Below are positions 5,370 through 32,396 of a stretch of DNA of 34,503 nucleotides, in pieces. Below the pieces are notes generated by a model. It ran no database searches, was not told where the DNA came from, and saw only the letters and a program-made list of their open reading frames with translations. Numbering within the stretch: the first letter of the stretch is position 1; every line of letters begins with the position of its first letter. The translations under genes and the position numbers were made by a program. The DNA is from Solobacterium sp. (lineage in GTDB: Bacteria; Bacillota_I; Bacilli_A; Erysipelotrichales; Erysipelotrichaceae): the NCBI GenBank assembly GCA_022486935.1, contig JAKVJO010000013.1, forward strand, positions 1 to 34,503, given 5' to 3'.

Positions 5370-6257
5370 TTATGCACGATCTGCAGCTTTCTGTTCTGCA
5401 TGATGCTTCAGCACCATGTTGATCAGCATGCCGACAGCGATCAGACATCCGCCGATCAATGACTGCCTGGAAGAGGCCGCACCGGTAAACAGATCAATCA
5501 CTGTGCTGCATGCAAGCTGGCCAAGAAAGGAAAGCAGGGTCAGCTGGAATGCCGGCAGATGGGGAACCAGCAGATTGTTCAATGAGACACCGACAACACC
5601 GAAGATTCCACCGAGATACATCCACCATGGGGCAGATGCCATTTCACTGACGGTGAAATGATTGCCAAGCAGTAACATCAGTACAATTGTGACCGGCATG
5701 GCTGCCGCAAAGTTGAGGAAGGTGCCCTGCATGGTACCGACTGACTGGGCAAGCCGGGCATTCATGGAACGGGAAGTGACAATGGATACGCCGGCTCCCA
5801 ATGACATGACAACTGCGGCAATTCCGGAAGATACAGAAGAATCCATCATGATGATAATGCCGGCAATCGCAAACAGGAATCCGATCAGGGTGCTTTTCTG
5901 GAACGGATGCTTCTTCATGCCGAAGAATCCGAAGGAATCAATGAACAGGGAAGTGATTGTTTCGCCAAGCAGCCCCAGGGCAGAAATGCTGAGCATGGAA
6001 ATCTTGCCGAATGACGATGCCTGGAAGATGGTGGTACAGATACCAACCACACCGGCAAAGTACATCCATTTCGGGGCTTTGGGATCAAACTTCAATTTCC
6101 GGTGCGTCACCAGGAGCACAATCCCACAGGCAACCAGCCCGAACAGATGGATGATCATGGCACCGGTATAGGAATCAAATACACCGACGAGCGATCCATT
6201 AATTGAAATCATGACCGAGAAAAATGAACCGAGTAAGAATGAAAACAAGAGATACAT
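5370..6257 (-). CDS. DMT-superfamily (DUF606/YdcZ-like, duplicated) transporter
   Basis: A 295-residue integral membrane protein with about ten hydrophobic segments arranged as two five-helix halves (roughly 1-145 and 150-290). Each half resembles the short DUF606/YdcZ-type drug/metabolite transporters, so this is probably a fused two-repeat version. The substrate is unknown. AGGGG lies 8 bases upstream of ATG 6257. A minus-strand TATAAT (plus 6289-6294) lies just upstream, so this is probably the first gene of the operon that continues into the alcohol dehydrogenase and redox genes. An EamA-type label would also be acceptable. Confidence 0.75.
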   Translation of the reverse strand: MYLLFSFLLGSFFSVMISINGSLVGVFDSYTGAMIIHLFGLVACGIVLLVTHRKLKFDPKAPKWMYFAGVVGICTTIFQASSFGKISMLSISALGLLGETITSLFIDSFGFFGMKKHPFQKSTLIGFLFAIAGIIIMMDSSVSSGIAAVVMSLGAGVSIVTSRSMNARLAQSVGTMQGTFLNFAAAMPVTIVLMLLLGNHFTVSEMASAPWWMYLGGIFGVVGVSLNNLLVPHLPAFQLTLLSFLGQLACSTVIDLFTGAASSRQSLIGGCLIAVGMLINMVLKHHAEQKAADRA

Positions 6258-11668: not shown

Positions 11669-13042
11669 ATGCCGAAGACTGTTTCAAAACCGATGACCGA
11701 GGGCAATATCCTGAAGGAAATCATCATCTTCTCCCTGCCTCTGATTCTCGGAAATCTGTTTCAGCAGGCGTATAACCTGGTGGATACATCCATTGTCGGA
11801 AAGACCCTCGGATCCAATGCGCTGGCCAGTGTCGGTGTCTCTTCCTCTGTTCAGTTTCTTGTACTTGGTTTCTGCATGGGTGTGGCAATCGGCTTTGCCA
11901 TTCCGGTTGCGACCAAGTTCGGCTCAGGCGACCTGCATGCAATGCGGCAGTATGTCTATATCGGCGGTGTGCTGACAGCGATCATTGCGGCGGTGCTGAC
12001 CGTCTCTACCGTAGTGCTGTGTCCTTCCATCCTGCATCTGCTGGATACGCCGACGGAGATTTATCCGGATGCCTACAGATATCTGGTGACAATCTTTGCC
12101 GGAATTCCCTGCAGTCTTCTCTATAACTACCTGTCCGGTATCCTGCGGGCAATCGGTGATTCCAAAACCCCGTTCATGTTCCTTGCATTCTCGGCAACAT
12201 TGAATATCTTCCTGGATCTCTTCTGTATCATTGTGCTGGATCTTGGCTGTTTCGGTGCGGCAATCGCTACAATCATTTCCCAGGGCGTCAGCGGTCTGCT
12301 GTGTCTGATCCTGATTCTTCGTAAGTTCGAAGTGCTTCATCTGAGAAAAGAGGATCGTGTCTTTGACCATGATATGGCAAAACATGCGCTGAACATGGGC
12401 GTTCCGATGGGACTGCAGTATTCCATTACGGCAATCGGTTCCATGGTCATGCAGACATCAAACAATTCACTGGGTACACTGTATGTCTCAGCCTATGCGG
12501 CAGGCCTCAAGATCAAGCAGTTTGTCATGAGCCCGTTTGATGCATTCGCAACTGCAACAGCAACCTTCTGTTCACAGAACTATGGTGCAGAAAAAACAGA
12601 CCGGATCAAAGAGGGTATCAAGATCGGTCTGGGCATTGCGGTTGGCTACAGTGTCATCGCAACGATTATCATGGTGTTCTTTGGCCGCAGTCTGTCACTG
12701 TTATTCCTGGATGAAAGCAATACACAGATTCTCGATGCGGCTGCCAAGTATCTGAAGTATATCGGTCTGTTCTATTCCCTGCTTGGAATTCTCAATGTCT
12801 CAAGACAGGTCATCCAGGGGCTTGGCTGGAGCCGGCGGGCAATGCTGTCAGGCGCCATTGAAATGGTAGCGAGGATTATTGTCTGTGCAGGATTTACAGG
12901 CACCTTTGGGTTTACTGCAATCTGCTGTGCAGACCAGGTTGCCTGGATCGCAGCAGATCTCTATTGTGTGCCAACCCTGATTTCATGTGTGAAGCACATT
13001 GAGCAGAGTATTGCCATATCCCACGCCTCCGCGATTGAATAA
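11669..13042 (+). CDS. MATE-family multidrug efflux transporter
   Basis: A 457-residue integral membrane protein with about twelve hydrophobic segments in two similar halves, typical of Na+- or H+-driven MATE exporters (NorM/DinF superfamily, VmrA-like). Characteristic blocks include PLILGNLFQQAYNLVDT near the N-terminus and GLKIKQFVMSPFDAFATA in the middle. ATG 11669 is used because GGGGAGGG lies 8 bases upstream; the earlier in-frame ATG 11651 overlaps that ribosome site. Monocistronic, ending at the hairpin at 13046. Substrate cannot be deduced. Confidence 0.9.
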   Translation: MPKTVSKPMTEGNILKEIIIFSLPLILGNLFQQAYNLVDTSIVGKTLGSNALASVGVSSSVQFLVLGFCMGVAIGFAIPVATKFGSGDLHAMRQYVYIGGVLTAIIAAVLTVSTVVLCPSILHLLDTPTEIYPDAYRYLVTIFAGIPCSLLYNYLSGILRAIGDSKTPFMFLAFSATLNIFLDLFCIIVLDLGCFGAAIATIISQGVSGLLCLILILRKFEVLHLRKEDRVFDHDMAKHALNMGVPMGLQYSITAIGSMVMQTSNNSLGTLYVSAYAAGLKIKQFVMSPFDAFATATATFCSQNYGAEKTDRIKEGIKIGLGIAVGYSVIATIIMVFFGRSLSLLFLDESNTQILDAAAKYLKYIGLFYSLLGILNVSRQVIQGLGWSRRAMLSGAIEMVARIIVCAGFTGTFGFTAICCADQVAWIAADLYCVPTLISCVKHIEQSIAISHASAIE

Positions 13043-24496: not shown

Positions 24497-25143
24497 TGCG
24501 CAGAGAATTGGATGAGGAACTGGCCCAGCTGAACCGTGAGATGATCTCCATGGGTTCCATGTGCGAACAGGCAATCAAACTGACAGAGCAATCATTGATC
24601 CATGAGACCGTACAGCAGGCTAGAGAAGTAAAGCCGCTGCAGGAACAGATTCTCCAGAAAGAGAAGCACATTGAATCCATGTGCCTGAGACTGCTTCTGC
24701 TGCAGCAGCCGATGGCCAGTGATCTGCGGGAGATCAGCGCTGCGTTGAAGATGGTGACAGACATGTTTCGAATCGGCGAAGTGGCAGGGGATGCGGCAGA
24801 TATCATTCTCTATATGAACCGGTTTCACCGGATCGCAGACATTGAAGAACTCTCTGAGAAGGCGGTATCCATGGTGCATCAGTCAGTGGATGCCTTTGTA
24901 AAGCAGGATCTTCAACTTGCGAAAAGTGTGATCGCGTATGATGATGTAGTGGACGATCTCTTCCTCAAAGTGAAGAAAGATCTCGTTCAGGCAATCCGCA
25001 GCGATGCGGATGATGCAGAAGATTATGTAGATCTTCTGATGATTGCCAAATACTTTGAGAAGATCGGAGACCACGCGGTCAGTATTGCAGAATGGGTAGT
25101 CTATTCCCTGACTGGCGTGCATAAGGGAGAAGTAGAGCCATGA
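24496..25143 (+). CDS. phoU: Phosphate signalling protein PhoU
   Basis: A 215-residue all-helical protein with two PhoU repeats (about 1-105 and 110-210). Conserved acidic clusters are visible in DMFRIGEVAGDAADI and YFEKIGDHAVSIAEW, which bind metal in known structures. PhoU links the Pst transporter to the PhoR sensor and represses the regulon when phosphate is sufficient. GGGAGG lies 8 bases upstream. It overlaps pstB by one base and phoP by ATGA. Confidence 0.95.
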   Translation: MRRELDEELAQLNREMISMGSMCEQAIKLTEQSLIHETVQQAREVKPLQEQILQKEKHIESMCLRLLLLQQPMASDLREISAALKMVTDMFRIGEVAGDAADIILYMNRFHRIADIEELSEKAVSMVHQSVDAFVKQDLQLAKSVIAYDDVVDDLFLKVKKDLVQAIRSDADDAEDYVDLLMIAKYFEKIGDHAVSIAEWVVYSLTGVHKGEVEP

Positions 25144-25817
25144 TTGCTGTCGTAGAAGATGATGAAAGCATCCGTGAGATCGAACTCTATACATTGAAAA
25201 CCACCGGCTTTGAAGCGACAGGCTATCCGGATGGGGCTGCATTCTTTGCGGCATTGAAACAGAAGATGCCATCACTTGTCATTCTTGACGTGATGCTGCC
25301 AAATGAAGATGGAATCAGTATTCTGAAGAAACTCCGTGCTGCCCCAAACACAGAACATCTGCCGGTCATTCTGGCTACGGCAAGAAGTTCTGAATATGAC
25401 AAGGTAAAGGGACTGGATCTTGGCGCGGATGATTATCTGGTCAAGCCATTCGGCATGATGGAGATGGTGTCCAGAGTCAAGGCAGTGCTGCGCAGAACAC
25501 AGAACAGCCAGGATGCTGAAATACTGACCTGCGGCATGATCCGCATGGATTCTTCCAGTCATACAGTTGCCGTGGACGGTCAGTCAATCGATCTGACACT
25601 GAAGGAATATGAACTGCTCCATGCATTCATGAAACGCCCGGGTATGGTCTATACCAGGGATCAGCTGCTGAATGAAATCTGGGGCATGGAATACGACGGA
25701 GAGACCAGAACGGTCGATGTCCATATCCGTACACTCCGCAGTAAACTCGGCAAGGCCGGAGACTGCATCAGCACGGTGCGGGGAATCGGCTACCGCATGG
25801 AAGTGGAGCCGGTATGA
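25140..25817 (+). CDS. phoP: PhoP/PhoB-type response regulator
   Basis: A 225-residue OmpR-family response regulator. Receiver domain 1-118 has the acidic pair D7-D8, phosphoacceptor D50 (LVILDVMLP) and K102 in YLVKPFG. A winged-helix DNA-binding domain (about 130-222) follows with the ETRTVDVHIRTLRSKLG recognition helix. It probably binds the Pho box at 20923. It overlaps phoU and phoR by ATGA at both ends. Confidence 0.92.
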   Translation: MIAVVEDDESIREIELYTLKTTGFEATGYPDGAAFFAALKQKMPSLVILDVMLPNEDGISILKKLRAAPNTEHLPVILATARSSEYDKVKGLDLGADDYLVKPFGMMEMVSRVKAVLRRTQNSQDAEILTCGMIRMDSSSHTVAVDGQSIDLTLKEYELLHAFMKRPGMVYTRDQLLNEIWGMEYDGETRTVDVHIRTLRSKLGKAGDCISTVRGIGYRMEVEPV

Positions 25818-27472
25818 CCAAACGGATCTTTCATTCGGTATTCTGGGCATGTGTATTGATCCTTGCGGCCAGTCTTGGCCTGGTGCTCAGTGTACTGAAT
25901 ACACACTTTGTTTCGATTGAGCGCACACAGCTGAAAGCGGAAGCGGAACTGGCAGCTCAGGGAATCGAAAACGAAGGGACGTCATTCTTCGATGGAATTG
26001 ATCTTGGCAGCTACCGGGTCACCTGGATCAACAGCGATGGAACGGTACTCTATGATTCAGTCGCAGATTCCGAAAGCATGGTCAATCATTTCGACCGTGA
26101 AGAATTCAAAGAAGCGATGAGCACCGGCACCGGTACCAGTGACCGCTACTCGGCCACGATGTCTACCAAGACACTCTACTATGCCGTGAAAGTAAATGAC
26201 GGTACAGTGGTCAGAACGGCAGTCACTCAGGATACGATCATGGTGCTGGTATTGAAGATGGCACAGCCGATCCTGATCATCCTGCTGGCGGCACTTGCGG
26301 TATCCTACTTCCTTGCAAAGAAACTGTCCCAGCGGATTGTCAAACCGATCAACCAGCTGGACCTGGATCACCCGCTGCAGAATCAGGTAGATGAAGAACT
26401 GTTCCCGCTGCTGCAGAAAATCGATGAGCAGAACAACCGGCTTGATTCCCAGATGGAGCAGCTGACAGCCAGACAGAAAGAGTTCGATACAATCACCTCT
26501 GTGATGAGTGAAGGACTGATCCTGATTGACAACAACGGACTGGTTCTCAGTATGAACCAGGCTGCCCGTGTGCTTCTGAAGGCACCTGAAGGAGTAGAAG
26601 GAAAGAGTCTTCTCGTTGTTGACCGCAGTGAAGGCATGCAGAAAGCGCTGGACTGCGTCCTGCATGGCGAGGCGGATGAAGAAACCATGCAGATCCAGAA
26701 AGACACCTACGAAATCCATGCCAGCCCGGTGGTCAGCCACAATGAACTGCGCGGCGCATGTCTGGTTATCTTTGGCCTCAGTGACAAGCGCAAGGCAGAA
26801 CAGCAGCGTCAGGAATTCTCAGCCAATGTATCACATGAACTGAAGAGTCCGCTGCAGACGATCATCGGTGCTTCTGAACTGCTGGAGAATCACATGGTGA
26901 AGAAGGAAGATGAAGATCACTTCCTGAAGGAAATCCATGGTGAGTCTGAACGCCTCCTGCATTTGATTGATGATATTATCCGGCTCTCGCAGCTGGATGA
27001 GAATCAGGATATGACCATGGAGAACATATCCATCGGTTCAGCAGTCAATGAGGCGATTGAAGCACTGCAGCCGCAGGCAGACAGCCGTCATGTACAGATC
27101 GACTATGATGGCAGTGATGCCCATATCCAGGGCGTCAGCAGGCTGATCTATGAAATTGCCTACAACCTGCTGGATAACGCAATCCGCTATAACAGGGATC
27201 CAGGCAGTGTGACCATCCGGATCAGTGACACGGATGATCAGGCAGTTCTGAGCGTCAAAGACACCGGCATTGGTATTGCAGAGGATCAGATCCCGCGGAT
27301 CTTCGAACGCTTCTACCGGGTGGACAAGAGCCGCTCGAGAGCGAGCGGAGGAACCGGTCTTGGTCTGTCGATTGTCAAACATGCGATTCAGGTTCATCAG
27401 GCAAAGATTGATGTCAGCAGTCAGCTTGGCGTTGGTACAGAAATGACTGTGACATTTCCGAAACGGCAGTAA
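25814..27472 (+). CDS. phoR: PhoR-type sensor histidine kinase
   Basis: A 552-residue membrane histidine kinase. Helix 1 is about 8-29, an extracytoplasmic loop runs 30-145, and helix 2 is about 147-170. A linker and a PAS domain (about 220-325) precede the dimerisation domain with phosphoacceptor H341 in NVSHELKSPL. The ATPase domain has N box NLLDNAIRYN, G1 DTGIGI, F box FERFYRVDKSRSR and G2 GGTGLGLSI. The position at the end of the pst-phoU operon supports phosphate sensing. It overlaps phoP by ATGA and is closed by the hairpin at 27480. Confidence 0.93.
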   Translation: MTKRIFHSVFWACVLILAASLGLVLSVLNTHFVSIERTQLKAEAELAAQGIENEGTSFFDGIDLGSYRVTWINSDGTVLYDSVADSESMVNHFDREEFKEAMSTGTGTSDRYSATMSTKTLYYAVKVNDGTVVRTAVTQDTIMVLVLKMAQPILIILLAALAVSYFLAKKLSQRIVKPINQLDLDHPLQNQVDEELFPLLQKIDEQNNRLDSQMEQLTARQKEFDTITSVMSEGLILIDNNGLVLSMNQAARVLLKAPEGVEGKSLLVVDRSEGMQKALDCVLHGEADEETMQIQKDTYEIHASPVVSHNELRGACLVIFGLSDKRKAEQQRQEFSANVSHELKSPLQTIIGASELLENHMVKKEDEDHFLKEIHGESERLLHLIDDIIRLSQLDENQDMTMENISIGSAVNEAIEALQPQADSRHVQIDYDGSDAHIQGVSRLIYEIAYNLLDNAIRYNRDPGSVTIRISDTDDQAVLSVKDTGIGIAEDQIPRIFERFYRVDKSRSRASGGTGLGLSIVKHAIQVHQAKIDVSSQLGVGTEMTVTFPKRQ

Positions 27473-27479
27473 ATCAAGA

Positions 27480-27510
27480 GATGATCCAGTTTATAGCCGG
27501 ATCATCTTTT
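27480..27510. terminator. Bidirectional terminator between phoR and the van cluster
   Basis: GATGATCC / GGATCATC 8-bp stem with an 11-base loop, followed by TTTT on the plus strand and TCTCTTGATTT on the minus strand. It serves both the phosphate operon and the convergent racemase gene. Confidence 0.85.
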
Positions 27511-28631
27511 CAATTGGCCCAGAGTCTTGGAAGGCGTGTTCCAAGCCGGCTGAGCAGTTCATTCGAAATCGTATTGCAGTGGGCAGCCCATTCACAGGCG
27601 GTAATCGTTTTCGATCCTTCCGTTCCGACCAGGGTCACGATATCTCCTTCGTGAATATCATCAATCCCACTGACATCAATCAACAGCTGGTCCATGCACA
27701 GCCTGCCGATGATCATTGCCCGATGTCCATGGACCAATACATGCATGTCGCTGCAGCAGCGGGGAATGCCATCTGCGTAGCCGATCGTGACAGTAGCGAT
27801 CGTGACAGGATGATCCGCCTGATATGCCATGCCATAACCGGCATACTCTTCGTTCTGCAATGGGCGTGTCATGGCAATGCGCGCATGCAGGGAAAGAACA
27901 GGCTTCAGCTGATAGCCCAATGTGCTGCTGGCGTTTTCGCCACTGAGACAGCCGTAAAGGGCGATACCGGGACGGGCCAGACTGCCGCAGGGATCCAACT
28001 GTTTCATGATTGCATAACTGGATAGCAGGTGAGTGGTCCCTGGATTGATTCCATCCTGTTTCAATCTGGCAATCAGCTGTTTGAATGATTGGATCTGTGC
28101 ACTGGTATATGCAGTTTCCTGCGGATCTGAACCATCACAGCAGGAAAGATGTGAGAAAAGACCAGTGACCCTGATGCCGCAAAGATGATAGATATCTTCG
28201 ATTTCAGCTAAGTGGCTGACATCTTCGCCAAGCCGCCGCATGCCGGTATCGACTGACACATGAACCTGCACTCCGCAGTTTCGCATGGAAAGCTGCTGCG
28301 CATATTCCAGTGATACGGCATTTTGAATCAGACGGTATCTGACCAGTTCATCAGCCAGTTCTGCAGAAGTTCTGCCCAGAATCAAAAGATCTGCCTGAAT
28401 GCCGGCATCCCTGAGTTCTTTCGCCTCAGAAAAGCAGGCAACACACATGGAGGTGATGCCGAGTTTTTCGAGCTGTTCTGCGATCAGTACAGCGCCATGT
28501 CCATAGGCATTTGCCTTGACTGCCGGCATCAGACTGCAGTGTGCTGGAAGATATGACTGTAATACTCTGACGTTATGTTCCAATGCGCTGCGATCAAGTT
28601 CGATCCACGCACGTTCGGTCTGTTCGTTCAT
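27510..28631 (-). CDS. Alanine/serine racemase (VanT C-terminal-domain type)
   Basis: A 373-residue PLP-dependent alanine racemase fold. The PLP lysine is K39 in AVKANAYGHG. The catalytic-tyrosine block is IGYADGIPR and GRLCMDQLLIDV follows. The C-terminus reads TISNELLSRLGTRLPR, as I recall for VanT serine racemase domains, rather than the NYE pattern of housekeeping Alr. AAGGAG lies 10 bases before the ATG, so it is translated on its own. In known vanG/vanC clusters this domain is fused to a membrane domain in one protein; here the two are separate, overlapping by 38 bases in different frames. It probably makes D-Ser; a general Alr role is the alternative. Confidence 0.85.
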   Translation of the reverse strand: MNEQTERAWIELDRSALEHNVRVLQSYLPAHCSLMPAVKANAYGHGAVLIAEQLEKLGITSMCVACFSEAKELRDAGIQADLLILGRTSAELADELVRYRLIQNAVSLEYAQQLSMRNCGVQVHVSVDTGMRRLGEDVSHLAEIEDIYHLCGIRVTGLFSHLSCCDGSDPQETAYTSAQIQSFKQLIARLKQDGINPGTTHLLSSYAIMKQLDPCGSLARPGIALYGCLSGENASSTLGYQLKPVLSLHARIAMTRPLQNEEYAGYGMAYQADHPVTIATVTIGYADGIPRCCSDMHVLVHGHRAMIIGRLCMDQLLIDVSGIDDIHEGDIVTLVGTEGSKTITACEWAAHCNTISNELLSRLGTRLPRLWAN

Positions 28632-29619
28632 TTGAGCTTAACTCCTTCGAATTCAATGCCTGAACTGCCCAGACAGAAAACAGGGCAGTCAGTGATAACG
28701 TACAGCTATAAAGAATGAGATGCTGATCCACAAAGAGCGCGGTCTGACCGGTAATCATTGCCAGCATACGTATCGCAACAATCATGTATGGATGAATTAT
28801 CCAGGCAATGCTGCAGGCATGTCTCAACTTGGAAGATTCCATGCCTTTGATTTTCAGCAGCAGACAAAACAGAAAGAACATCACAGGCGGAAGAAACAGG
28901 TACATGGCATCGAAATGAAGACTGCTGGACTGATGCGTAATAAACGCTTCAGCAGTCATACATGCAAGACTGATCAACAGCAGAACGATGCAGGGCCCTG
29001 TTTTGACAGTGCGTTTCTGGATTTGCATCTGCATGCCCATATACAGAAACAGCGGTGCCATGAAGAGCCCGTTTCTGGTATAGCTGAACCATTGGAACAT
29101 GCAGGAGTACAGGTTCTTCAATAAAGGAACATCGGCAGTGATGCCATACCAGCTGTCACCAAACAGACCAATCAGATACAGGATGGATACTGCCAGCCAC
29201 GGCAGGATCTGGCTGCGGTTCTTTCTGAATAAACAGACAATCAAAGATCAGATCAGTACAGCCGGGAAGTACCACAGGTGATACATGGTCCCGTCAAAAC
29301 ACAAAAGACTGAATAAGCTGAAAAGTGAAAGCGAAGACAAGGTACCGTTGTAGATGGACAGCGGCAGATACAGCAGTACTGCACCAAGGTATAAAAGCAA
29401 TGTCCGCTTCTGCCAGTTTTGAATCCGCATATCATCATCGGAAGAAAGGACAAAATATCCAGTCACTGTGAAGAAGAACGGTACCGCAGTACGGCCCAGT
29501 ACTCTGGTGAGAATGAAATCTGCTTCAGAACTGATCCCGTACAGCGGACTGATGTGAATGGAAATGACCATCAGCACTGCCAGGATGCGGTACCCGTCAA
29601 TTCCGTTGAGCCGTTTCAT
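28594..29619 (-). pseudogene. VanT-like membrane (acyltransferase-3) domain gene, interrupted by UGA
   Basis: A 10-helix acyltransferase-3-type membrane domain matching the N-terminal half of VanT, proposed to take up L-serine. It starts at ATG 29619 (overlap ATGA with vanXY) and reads MKRLNGIDGYRILAVLM, then HLWYFPAVLI, where an in-frame TGA occurs at 29250-29248. The same frame continues without further stops for 217 codons to 28594, and the helical pattern (FLFCLLL, LYLIGLFGDSWYGI) continues. One nonsense change therefore splits an otherwise intact gene into 123 and about 216 residues. The downstream part begins at a TTG with no ribosome site. The substituted codon could have been TGG, CGA or GGA. 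Confidence 0.8.
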
Positions 29620-30356
29620 CGCCGGATCATTTCCGTCAGGATCAGACGGCTGATGTTGTCACCGGAGATTCTGACAGTCCGATTGGCTGGCAGTGGAATA
29701 TCAGCGCCGATGGAAGAAATCCTGTATTCTGCATGATCTGCTGCAGAGTATGAGGAATAGTACTGACTGAGCTCATAGGGATAGCTGCGGATCAGATCGA
29801 TGTATTCCTCCAGAGACAGATGATGCTGGGTGATGATTGCGGCATGCGGGATACCGACATAACGGAAGTGCCATGGTTCACTGGAAATGTGAGTGATGGA
29901 CTGCTTCTCTTCGGCATAACGTTCAATGAAGCCAAACTTCGCTGCGGCATCCCTGAACACCTGGCAGATTCCCTCATGGGGAAAGTCGGGACGGATGAAG
30001 TCGATCTTCTCCTGTTTCTTTCCAAGATCAATTGCCAGTCCGGTTTCGTGTTCACTGTGTCCGGGAATTGCAACATACTGACTGGTGAATTCCGGGCCGT
30101 CTTGTTTGAGGCAGTCATCAAAGATTTTCTGCTGCTCACTGTGGGGACGATACCCGCTGACCGGCACAATACCATCCCAGCCATGGATTGATTCCATACA
30201 GAGGCTGAGCATATGCGCTGCTTCCTTTTCCAGCTGGATATCGGGGAAGGATGGATGTACTGTGACCATTTCATTCTGCAGGTCACTGCAGCCATAGTCC
30301 GGATTCACCAGGATGAGGGATCCGGAGTGAATCCGGTTCTTCAGATCAGAAGTCAT
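29616..30356 (-). CDS. vanXY: D,D-dipeptidase/D,D-carboxypeptidase (VanXY type)
   Basis: A 246-residue M15B zinc peptidase. Zinc ligands are H103 and D110 in SEHETGLAID and H163 in EPWHFRYVG, with catalytic E160. The SGYRPHSEQQ block at 67-76 and YVAIPGHSEH are typical of VanXY. It removes D-Ala-D-Ala dipeptide or terminal D-Ala so that only altered precursors remain. No signal peptide, so cytoplasmic, as VanXY is. The start overlaps the ligase stop (ATGA) and the stop overlaps the next gene. Confidence 0.88.
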   Translation of the reverse strand: MTSDLKNRIHSGSLILVNPDYGCSDLQNEMVTVHPSFPDIQLEKEAAHMLSLCMESIHGWDGIVPVSGYRPHSEQQKIFDDCLKQDGPEFTSQYVAIPGHSEHETGLAIDLGKKQEKIDFIRPDFPHEGICQVFRDAAAKFGFIERYAEEKQSITHISSEPWHFRYVGIPHAAIITQHHLSLEEYIDLIRSYPYELSQYYSSYSAADHAEYRISSIGADIPLPANRTVRISGDNISRLILTEMIRR

Positions 30357-31399
30357 TTTTCGAGCGCCTCTTTGACAGCGAGATCAATCACTTTCTCAAA
30401 TGGAATGCCGGAAGCTTTCATCATACCGGGATAGCGGCTGTGTTCAGTAAAGCCGGGAATCGTATTGACTTCATTGAAAACAATCTCATTCTGCGGTGTC
30501 ACAAACATGTCAACTCTTGCAAACCCGGAACATCCAAGCACCTGATAGATCTTCAATGCATCGGCTCTTGCCTGCCTGCGTGTATCTGCTGAGACTCTTG
30601 CCGGCACATGAATGGAAGAGGTCTTCAGCGTATATTTCTCGGTATAGTCGAAGAATCCCTGTGAGAGTTCGATTTCATCCAGTTCACTGATGATTGGTTC
30701 ATCTGTTCCAAGAATCGCACAGCCAATCTCGAATCCGTCGATCGCCTCTTCAATGATGATTTCATCATCGAATTTAAATGCCAGCGAGATCGCTTCGCTC
30801 AGTTTGGATGGATCGGATACTTTGGTGATGCCATAGGAAGAACCTGCCTTGACCGGCTTGATGAACAGAGGCAGCGGTTCATAGTCTGCATAAGCCAGCG
30901 CTTCTTCCTGGTGCCCCTGATGGAATACCCGGTATTTTGGAACCCGGATGCCTGCGGTCTGTACCAGCTTATGAGCGCGGTCTTTATCCATGCACAGCGC
31001 AGATGCCAGCACACCACAGCCCACGGTTGGGATATCCAGCAGTTTCAGCATGCCCTGAACGGTTCCGTCTTCTCCGTTTCTGCCATGCAGGACAGGGAAT
31101 GCGGCATCGATCTGCAATACTTTGCGTTCATCACCGTTGTATTCCAGAAATGCATGGATACTGCGGTTCATGATGAGGGTGACCGGCCGGCAGGTCTCGG
31201 GAGAAAACCAGCGGTCATCTTTGATCAGTGCCGGATCGCCGGCGAAGTGATACCAGTTGCCGGATACGGTAATACCGATCAACAGTACTTCATAGCCATT
31301 GATCTTCAGTCCTTTGATCACGGAAGAAGCAGATGACAGCGATACGCTGTATTCTGAGGAACATCCTCCGAAGATGACTGCGATCCGAATTGTTTTCAT
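30353..31399 (-). CDS. vanG: D-Ala-D-Ser ligase (VanG/VanC type)
   Basis: A 348-residue ATP-grasp ligase of the D-Ala-D-Ala family. The N-terminal IFGGCSSEYSVSL (Tyr where ordinary Ddl has His), the ATP-grasp lysine-rich segment FIKPVKAGSSYGITKV, and the omega-loop EKYTLKTSSIHVPAR with EKY place it among D-Ala-D-Ser ligases (VanC/E/G). The Mg-binding end is FARVDMFVTPQNEIVFNEVNTIPGFT. GGGAGG lies 6 bases upstream. It is flanked by vanW and vanXY with ATGA overlaps. A housekeeping Ddl is the less likely alternative, given neighbours and motifs. The vanG versus vanC subtype is a family-level call. Confidence 0.88.
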   Translation of the reverse strand: MKTIRIAVIFGGCSSEYSVSLSSASSVIKGLKINGYEVLLIGITVSGNWYHFAGDPALIKDDRWFSPETCRPVTLIMNRSIHAFLEYNGDERKVLQIDAAFPVLHGRNGEDGTVQGMLKLLDIPTVGCGVLASALCMDKDRAHKLVQTAGIRVPKYRVFHQGHQEEALAYADYEPLPLFIKPVKAGSSYGITKVSDPSKLSEAISLAFKFDDEIIIEEAIDGFEIGCAILGTDEPIISELDEIELSQGFFDYTEKYTLKTSSIHVPARVSADTRRQARADALKIYQVLGCSGFARVDMFVTPQNEIVFNEVNTIPGFTEHSRYPGMMKASGIPFEKVIDLAVKEALEK

Positions 31400-32226
31400 A
31401 AGAGCCCTCCCTGCATGACTGCAGTTCCTTCCGGCAGCGGATAGCCGATTTCACAGGTGTTGCGGTAAAGCACGCGGCGATAGGCATTCTCCGGATGCCC
31501 ATTCAGATATCTTGTCTGAAGCACATCAACCTGTTCATAGATGCGATGATTCTCACTGACATAATTCAGGTTGCAGTTGGCAACTCCGTAGCGGTATCCT
31601 TCATCACTGCTGCACAGGATGCGGCAGATGATATCTGTATCCGTAAACTCAATCCGGATCTGGTAGACATCAGACGAATCATTCCGTGCTTTCAGGTCCA
31701 GCCAGCCTTCTGCGACAGTCGCATCCACACCCTTGACGGCATCGGAGTCGGGCTCCGGGAAATCCTTGACGGCATGACCGTGACGCTCAGTCACATTCAG
31801 CGGGGTATGAAGAAATGCCCAGAACAGCAGGTTGCTCAGCTGACACATCCCGCCGCCCGGGGCAGTGGTCAGTTTTCCGTTGATCACTGTCAGCCCGTCT
31901 TTATACGGTGTCTCTTCATCAGCGCCTTTGATTGTTTTGAAGAAGGAGAAGGTTTCATAGGGACGGATCAGCAGGCCATCCAGTTTTGCGGCAGCCAGCT
32001 TCAGGTTGAATACCTTGTTTTCCTGGTACTTCATATCAAAGCCGGTATCATGGTTGTACATGGGGCAGGCAGTCTTGAACAGTTCGACCGGAAGATCATC
32101 CTGCTGCTGTATCTTTGAATAGACATTGGAGTCGTGTTTCATCTTCCAGTAGAAGAAGTAGGTCTTCTCTTTTCTGCGAAGCGGTGCCAGCTGTGGAAAT
32201 ACCTCAGTCAAACGTTTTCTGCTCAT
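31396..32226 (-). CDS. vanW: VanW family protein
   Basis: A 276-residue member of the VanW family (YoaR/VanW domain). The diagnostic block GGGMCQLSNLLFWAFLHTPL is at about 141-160, with a flanking ERHGHAVKDFPEP. The biochemical role of VanW is not established. It is found in vanB and vanG operons upstream of the ligase, the order seen here. AGAGGG lies 7 bases before ATG 32226; the stop overlaps the ligase start. No signal peptide is evident. First gene of the five-gene leftward van cluster. Confidence 0.9.
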   Translation of the reverse strand: MSRKRLTEVFPQLAPLRRKEKTYFFYWKMKHDSNVYSKIQQQDDLPVELFKTACPMYNHDTGFDMKYQENKVFNLKLAAAKLDGLLIRPYETFSFFKTIKGADEETPYKDGLTVINGKLTTAPGGGMCQLSNLLFWAFLHTPLNVTERHGHAVKDFPEPDSDAVKGVDATVAEGWLDLKARNDSSDVYQIRIEFTDTDIICRILCSSDEGYRYGVANCNLNYVSENHRIYEQVDVLQTRYLNGHPENAYRRVLYRNTCEIGYPLPEGTAVMQGGLL

Positions 32227-32342: not shown

Positions 32343-32377
32343 AAACAAAAAAGGCCGTCTCTTTTGAAGAGACAGCC
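32341..32377 (-). terminator. Terminator of the HdeD-type gene
   Basis: Minus strand: GGC-GTCTCTT-N3-AAGAGAC-GCC stem (one internal mismatch) followed by TTTTTTGTTTC. It lies 20 bases after the stop codon at 32397. Confidence 0.88.
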
Positions 32378-32396
32378 CAGGGTAAATCAGCAGCAG

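What the first reader, a model, noticed from the sequence alone, without database searches (positions are those of the whole stretch)
28594..31399. vanG-type D-Ala-D-Ser cluster whose membrane domain is cut by one in-frame UGA
Ligase, vanXY, VanT-like membrane domain and racemase occur in the order of vanG operons. The membrane gene has a single TGA at 29250-29248; the same frame then stays open for 217 codons and keeps the helical pattern. The racemase has its own ribosome site and remains intact, so the cluster may make D-Ser without the proposed L-Ser import domain. TGA is used as a normal stop throughout the window, so this is most simply a nonsense change.
Basis: partly seen in the sequence, partly recalled or inferred. 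Interest (0 to 1): 0.75.

Follow-up and report, generated by a model that had tools for sequence, protein, structure and literature searches.

The report
VanG cluster with broken membrane subunit
An uncultured bacterium carries a known kind of vancomycin-resistance gene set whose membrane gene is cut by one ordinary stop codon while the enzyme that makes D-serine stays whole; this matters mildly because related gene sets that lack this membrane part altogether turn out to be scattered through many bacteria.

Summary
Observation confirmed. On the minus strand at 32226-27510 lies a vanW - vanG-type ligase - vanXY - VanT membrane subunit - VanT racemase operon. The membrane gene (29619-28594) has a single in-frame TGA at 29250-29248, inside helix TM4 of a predicted 10-helix acyltransferase (TmAT) fold; the frame then stays open for 217 codons. 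None of 82 matches in 80 other genomes of the order has an in-frame stop, and the interrupted position is an unvarying sense residue in 78 relatives. TGA is the commonest stop of this genome, and no UGA-decoding machinery was found. So this is most simply a nonsense change, or a base or strain-mixture error in a 62%-complete metagenome bin. Divergence after the TGA is not accelerated, so the change is recent. The separate racemase gene is an inherited layout, not damage. The 'L-Ser import' label is unproven. New context: VanG-type clusters with a VanT racemase but no membrane domain occur in at least 12 other genomes, scattered on the racemase tree (7-11 changes). Loss of this subunit is recurrent, and the racemase probably suffices. 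An ordinary mutation, but a useful natural knock-out.

The parts
31396..32226 (-). vanW-like accessory gene, first gene of the operon; its stop overlaps the ligase start (ATGA)
   Evidence: NCBIfam vanW-gen 377.5 bits, cut-off 365; Pfam VanW
30353..31399 (-). VanG-type D-Ala-D-Ser ligase
   Evidence: NF000091 VanG 510 bits, cut-off 495; best solved structure 4fu0, with the shared FFDYTEKYTLK stretch
29616..30356 (-). VanXY-type D,D-dipeptidase/carboxypeptidase
   Evidence: Best NF000149 vanXY_G 217 bits (cut-off 500, not reached) and NF000380 vanXY 199 (cut-off 250, not reached); best solved structure 4f78
28594..29619 (-). VanT membrane subunit gene (10-helix TmAT/AT3 fold), interrupted
   Evidence: Both halves match vanT-CELN and vanT-L-mem at consecutive positions; Pfam Acyl_transf_3 on the first half; model pLDDT 89.9, HGSNAT Z 15.1 over 294 residues
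29248..29250 (-). in-frame TGA at codon 124, inside predicted helix 117-132
   Evidence: Sequence; helix limits; unvarying sense residue in 78 of 78 relatives
28594..29247 (-). open remainder of the membrane gene (217 codons plus stop); a TTG lies two codons after the TGA, with no ribosome site seen
   Evidence: no faster divergence than before the TGA; GC3 0.57 against 0.58 before the TGA
27510..28631 (-). VanT racemase subunit, separate intact gene that overlaps the membrane gene's end by 38 bases
   Evidence: NF033131 vanT-G-Cterm 472 bits, cut-off 460; best solved structure 4ecl; PLP lysine K39 and VanT-type Asn357
28642..28647 (-). ribosome-binding site (AAGGAG) of the racemase gene, 10 bases before its ATG
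   Evidence: Sequence cgAAGGAGttaagctcaaATG
27479..27507 (-). terminator-like hairpin after the racemase
   Evidence: 11 pairs; number of such sites not above chance for the region
32352..32378 (-). terminator-like hairpin of the gene upstream of the operon
   Evidence: 12 pairs followed by a T run

Best explanation
A vanG-type D-Ala-D-Ser operon of the split-VanT layout (separate membrane and racemase genes) in which a recent single-codon nonsense change has silenced the membrane subunit. Shown: the anatomy, the single stop, its absence from all relatives found, and the presence of both a dedicated ligase and an ordinary Ddl. Inferred: the first piece (TM1-3 and half of TM4) is non-functional; the racemase is still translated from its own ribosome site and makes D-Ser in the cytoplasm from the cell's own L-Ser; the ligase joins it to D-Ala; VanXY removes D-Ala-D-Ala. 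The lost TmAT-fold subunit is an accessory part that a number of related clusters lack, so the operon may keep working, perhaps more weakly.
For: One stop only, with the two halves at consecutive profile positions. 0 of 82 other matches have a stop, and column 124 is unvarying in 78 of 78. TGA ends 404 of 788 coding-like ORFs. No UCA-anticodon tRNA in the 74% of the bin read, and no tRNA-Sec over cut-off in the whole bin; the best SelB-profile match is below cut-off and looks like EF-Tu. No unusual RNA fold after the TGA (z -0.04). Other genes of this bin are cut by TAA, so stop-cut genes here are not tied to TGA. End branch of the window after/before the TGA is 1.17 against 1.35 tree-wide, rank 18 of 55: a recent change. 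Racemase complete, with PLP Lys and VanT Asn, and its own AAGGAG. A same-genus relative has membrane (334 aa, intact) and racemase genes overlapping in the same way. Clusters without a membrane domain. Separate ordinary Ddl at C42.
Against: The sequence is a metagenome bin with no reads at hand, so a base error or a mixture of strains is not excluded. No relative closer than about 45% identity in the membrane protein was found, so age and fixation cannot be measured. The untranslated stretch of over 600 bases may lower racemase expression, and that was not tested. The window's remainder departs from 10 well-conserved columns (only 2 of 76 others depart from as many), a hint of relaxed constraint that is confounded by its long branch.
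Confidence: 0.72

Rival explanations
1. Assembly or base-call error, or one allele of a mixed population: the species as a whole has an intact membrane subunit.
For: 62%-complete bin in 80 contigs; no accelerated divergence after the TGA; the remainder keeps R182, N183, E224, M239, H276, P277 and R284, which are unvarying or nearly so in relatives.
Against: A single clean substitution-type change with no frameshift; the other genes of the operon read cleanly. No positive sign of an error.
Confidence: 0.16
2. UGA is read through or recoded at this site, so that a full-length protein is made at some level.
For: Frame and protein family are kept after the TGA.
Against: TGA is the main stop; no suppressor or Sec machinery found; no structure after the codon. 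Trp, the usual product of UGA misreading (own knowledge), is not the residue that relatives share there. No relative uses a stop at this place.
Confidence: 0.04
3. The gene works as two separately made membrane halves, by re-initiation at the TTG two codons after the stop.
For: A TTG at 29244 closely follows the stop; split membrane proteins can reassemble in general (own knowledge).
Against: No ribosome site before the TTG; the cut lies inside a helix; no relative is split there.
Confidence: 0.03
4. The whole cluster is decaying and cryptic, and the membrane gene is merely the first to go.
For: No vanRS genes adjoin the cluster in the window; vanG-like operons can be cryptic (C. difficile, PMC4405338).
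Against: The other four genes are intact, and ligase, vanW and racemase exceed curated family cut-offs.
Confidence: 0.1

Closest known systems
vanG operon of Enterococcus faecalis BM4518 (PMC4405338)
   Same: Order vanW-vanG-vanXY-vanT; ligase and racemase above the VanG-type cut-offs; closest solved ligase and racemase are 4fu0 and 4ecl
   Different: VanT is split into two genes, the membrane gene is broken, and no vanY, vanU, vanR or vanS adjoins. The E. faecalis operon also carries a broken gene (vanY, frameshift; PMC4405338)
vanL operon of E. faecalis (separate vanTm and vanTr; gene naming in PMC11597547)
   Same: Membrane and racemase parts on separate genes
   Different: Sequences score far below the vanL-specific cut-offs; the ligase is VanG-type
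TmAT / acyltransferase-3 superfamily (PMC12423673)
   Same: Predicted 10-helix fold; HGSNAT Z 15.1 (rmsd 4.9, 294 aligned), GWT1 Z 11.1; PF01757 on the first half
   Different: No acyl transfer shown for any VanT that I know of; here the protein is truncated
VanG-type clusters without a membrane gene (L035, L063, L064, L085, L090 and others; found here)
   Same: VanG ligase and VanT-type racemase with the VanT Asn
   Different: The membrane gene is absent and not just interrupted; vanR/vanS adjacent in those checked

Membership tests
vanG-type D-Ala-D-Ser cluster | VanG-family D-Ala-D-Ser ligase | tested here: met
   NF000091 510 bits, cut-off 495; EKY motif shared with 4fu0
vanG-type D-Ala-D-Ser cluster | VanXY enzyme | tested here: inconclusive
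   Best match is vanXY_G, and nearly all of 4f78 aligns, but the curated cut-offs are not reached
vanG-type D-Ala-D-Ser cluster | VanT serine racemase catalytic part | tested here: met
   NF033131 472 bits, cut-off 460; Asn357 and K39
vanG-type D-Ala-D-Ser cluster | intact VanT membrane domain | tested here: not met
   In-frame TGA at codon 124
vanG-type D-Ala-D-Ser cluster | adjacent vanU/vanR/vanS regulators | tested here: not met
   Nearest two-component pair is of PhoB/PnpS type and lies convergently at 25140-27472; its VanR/VanS scores are far below cut-off
vanG-type D-Ala-D-Ser cluster | D-Ser-ended precursors and low-level vancomycin resistance | not testable with these tools
   Uncultured bin; biochemistry needed
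TmAT (AT3) superfamily | 10-helix TmAT fold | tested here: met
   Model of the read-through protein, pLDDT 89.9; the ten best entries are HGSNAT and GWT1, Z 11-15, and the next is 7.6
Altered genetic code or selenocysteine UGA | UGA-decoding machinery in the genome | tested here: not met
   No tRNA-Sec over cut-off, no SelB over cut-off, no UCA anticodon in the stretches read; the bin is incomplete

The most novel reading that the evidence does not exclude
The VanT membrane subunit is not needed for the D-Ala-D-Ser pathway: a soluble VanT racemase is enough, and the TmAT-fold subunit does a separate job (acyl transfer or regulation, not L-Ser import) that lineages lose again and again; the window is caught in the act of one such loss.
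Probability: 0.4. Interest if true: 0.6.

Novelty: new member of a known kind. Interest (0 to 1): 0.36.

Why it matters
What the membrane half of VanT does is unsettled: it has been called an L-Ser transporter (PMC6182600), yet it has an acyltransferase fold and its function was recently called unrecognised (PMC12423673). A natural break next to an intact racemase, together with at least a dozen clusters that lack the part, gives ready-made comparisons for testing whether the part is needed at all. The broken gene itself is ordinary.

Tried and rejected
Recoding of UGA: rejected on stop usage and missing machinery. Ancient pseudogene: no acceleration after the stop. Split of membrane and racemase as a second lesion: rejected, since separate genes are common in relatives (36 against 50 fused, a count that includes more distant acyltransferase-type loci) and a same-genus locus overlaps in the same way. 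Looking for the same species: an exact 27-base probe found nothing in viral contigs; metagenome contigs could not be scanned, and the genome collection holds one genome per species. Plain Foldseek against PDB gave no significant match; only the second look by VIA-align did. Of the papers on VanT domain function, Meziane-Cherif 2015 is not held and Arias 2003 did not come up; what I say on the VanT Asn position rests on my own knowledge of that work plus the alignment to 4ecl.

Full report
What is there. The window is contig C13 of a 1.73-Mb metagenome bin, 62% complete, in 80 contigs. On the minus strand five genes run head to tail: vanW 32226-31396, ligase 31399-30353, vanXY 30356-29616, membrane gene 29619-28594, racemase 28631-27510. 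The first three junctions overlap by 4 bases (ATGA); the last overlap is 38 bases. Terminator-like hairpins lie before the operon (32378-32352) and after it (27507-27479), although such sites are not above chance in number. Ligase, vanW and racemase pass the curated VanG-type or general van cut-offs of NCBIfam; vanXY has the right best match but not the score. The closest solved structures are 4fu0 for the ligase, 4f78 for vanXY and 4ecl (serine racemase) for the racemase.

The stop. The membrane gene has one TGA at 29250-29248 (codon 124), and the frame is then open for 217 codons. Each half matches the VanT membrane profiles, at positions that follow one another. In 316 genomes of the order, 82 other matches in 80 genomes were found and none has a stop; column 124 is an unvarying sense residue in 78 of 78 relatives and at least 90% in a second alignment. 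In the predicted structure of the read-through protein (pLDDT 89.9) the stop lies inside helix 117-132, so the product keeps three helices and half of a fourth, and loses unvarying residues such as R182, E224, M239, H276, P277 and R284.

Why a plain nonsense change. TGA ends 404 of 788 coding-like ORFs of this bin. No tRNA with anticodon UCA was found in the 74% of the bin that was read; no tRNA-Sec and no SelB reach their cut-offs in the whole bin, the best SelB match having the length and the neighbour of EF-Tu. The RNA after the stop folds no better than shuffles. Other genes in the bin are also cut by stops: an MFS-type gene by TAA, and probably an FtsK-like one by TAA, so interruptions are not tied to TGA. 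Caveat: the bin is incomplete and there are no reads, so an error or a mixed population remains possible.

Age. On a fixed tree of 77 sequences, the window's end branch after/before the stop is 1.17, against 1.35 for the whole tree (rank 18 of 55). GC at third positions is 0.57 after and 0.58 before. There is thus no sign of long decay, though the remainder departs from 10 well-conserved columns, which only 2 of 76 others reach; the window also sits on a long branch.

The split is not damage. Among fetched loci both fused and separate membrane and racemase genes are common. G025, in the same genus, has ligase, vanXY, an intact 334-aa membrane gene and a racemase gene that overlaps it by 44 bases; a vanW match follows. 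So the racemase start inside the end of the membrane gene is inherited, and with AAGGAG 10 bases before its ATG it can be translated on its own. In vanL the parts are separate too (gene naming in PMC11597547).

What the lost part is. Foldseek alone found nothing significant, but a second look by VIA-align put ten acyltransferase entries on top (HGSNAT Z 15.1, rmsd 4.9, 294 aligned; GWT1 Z 11.1), with the next at 7.6. This agrees with PMC12423673, which places VanT of the G type in the TmAT superfamily and notes that the role of the domain has not been considered. The older label of L-Ser transporter is repeated in PMC6182600. I treat the function as open.

Natural clusters without the part. 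Among the loci brought in by the ligase, several have ligase, often vanXY, and racemase with no membrane gene between them. In 14 genomes of this sort, counting one with a remnant (L025), the membrane protein was sought genome-wide and found in only one. Their racemases keep the VanT-type Asn in nearly all cases and exceed the vanT-G catalytic cut-off where checked; vanR or vanS genes adjoin in those checked. On a racemase tree the state changes about 11 times, at least 7 by well-supported branches; counts cannot tell gain from loss, but L025, with a cut-down membrane domain fused to its racemase, points to loss. The window fits as one more, very recent, loss.

Likely working. Shown: gene content, intact racemase, a separate ordinary Ddl on C42, and no second alanine-racemase-family gene in the 62% recovered. 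Inferred: cytoplasmic L-Ser is turned into D-Ser, joined to D-Ala by the ligase, with VanXY removing competing D-Ala-D-Ala; the membrane subunit is accessory. Whether resistance is lowered is unknown.

Verdict. Its value is as a natural knock-out beside an under-noticed set of clusters without the membrane part.

Noticed in passing
L035, L043, L055, L063, L064, L073, L081, L083, L085, L086, L090 and others: VanG-type clusters (vanR/vanS adjacent where checked) with a VanT-type racemase but no VanT membrane gene, scattered over the racemase tree.
   Followed up: partly
L025:3998-5479: Racemase with a cut-down remnant (about 110 residues) of the VanT membrane domain fused in front.
   Followed up: partly
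L119-L130: Same-family genomes have an acyltransferase-type membrane gene placed after a racemase gene and not before it, near a ligase; racemases also carry the VanT-type Asn.
   Followed up: no
L183:11389-12558 (minus): MFS-transporter gene of the same bin cut by one in-frame TAA at 12019-12021.
   Followed up: partly
L146:4733-6283 (minus): FtsK/HerA-like match spans an in-frame TAA at 5669; possibly another broken gene of the same bin.
   Followed up: no
window 27510-28631: The cluster's racemase is the only alanine-racemase-family gene found in the recovered 62% of the genome; it may also have to supply D-Ala.
   Followed up: no
L170:2259-3302 (minus): Ddl-like ATP-grasp gene directly beside a KamA-like radical enzyme gene in the same bin.
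   Followed up: no
L013: A VanG-type ligase match in G078 has two stops inside (1 TAG, 1 TAA) and its racemase match is broken into pieces: a decaying cluster elsewhere in the order.
   Followed up: no
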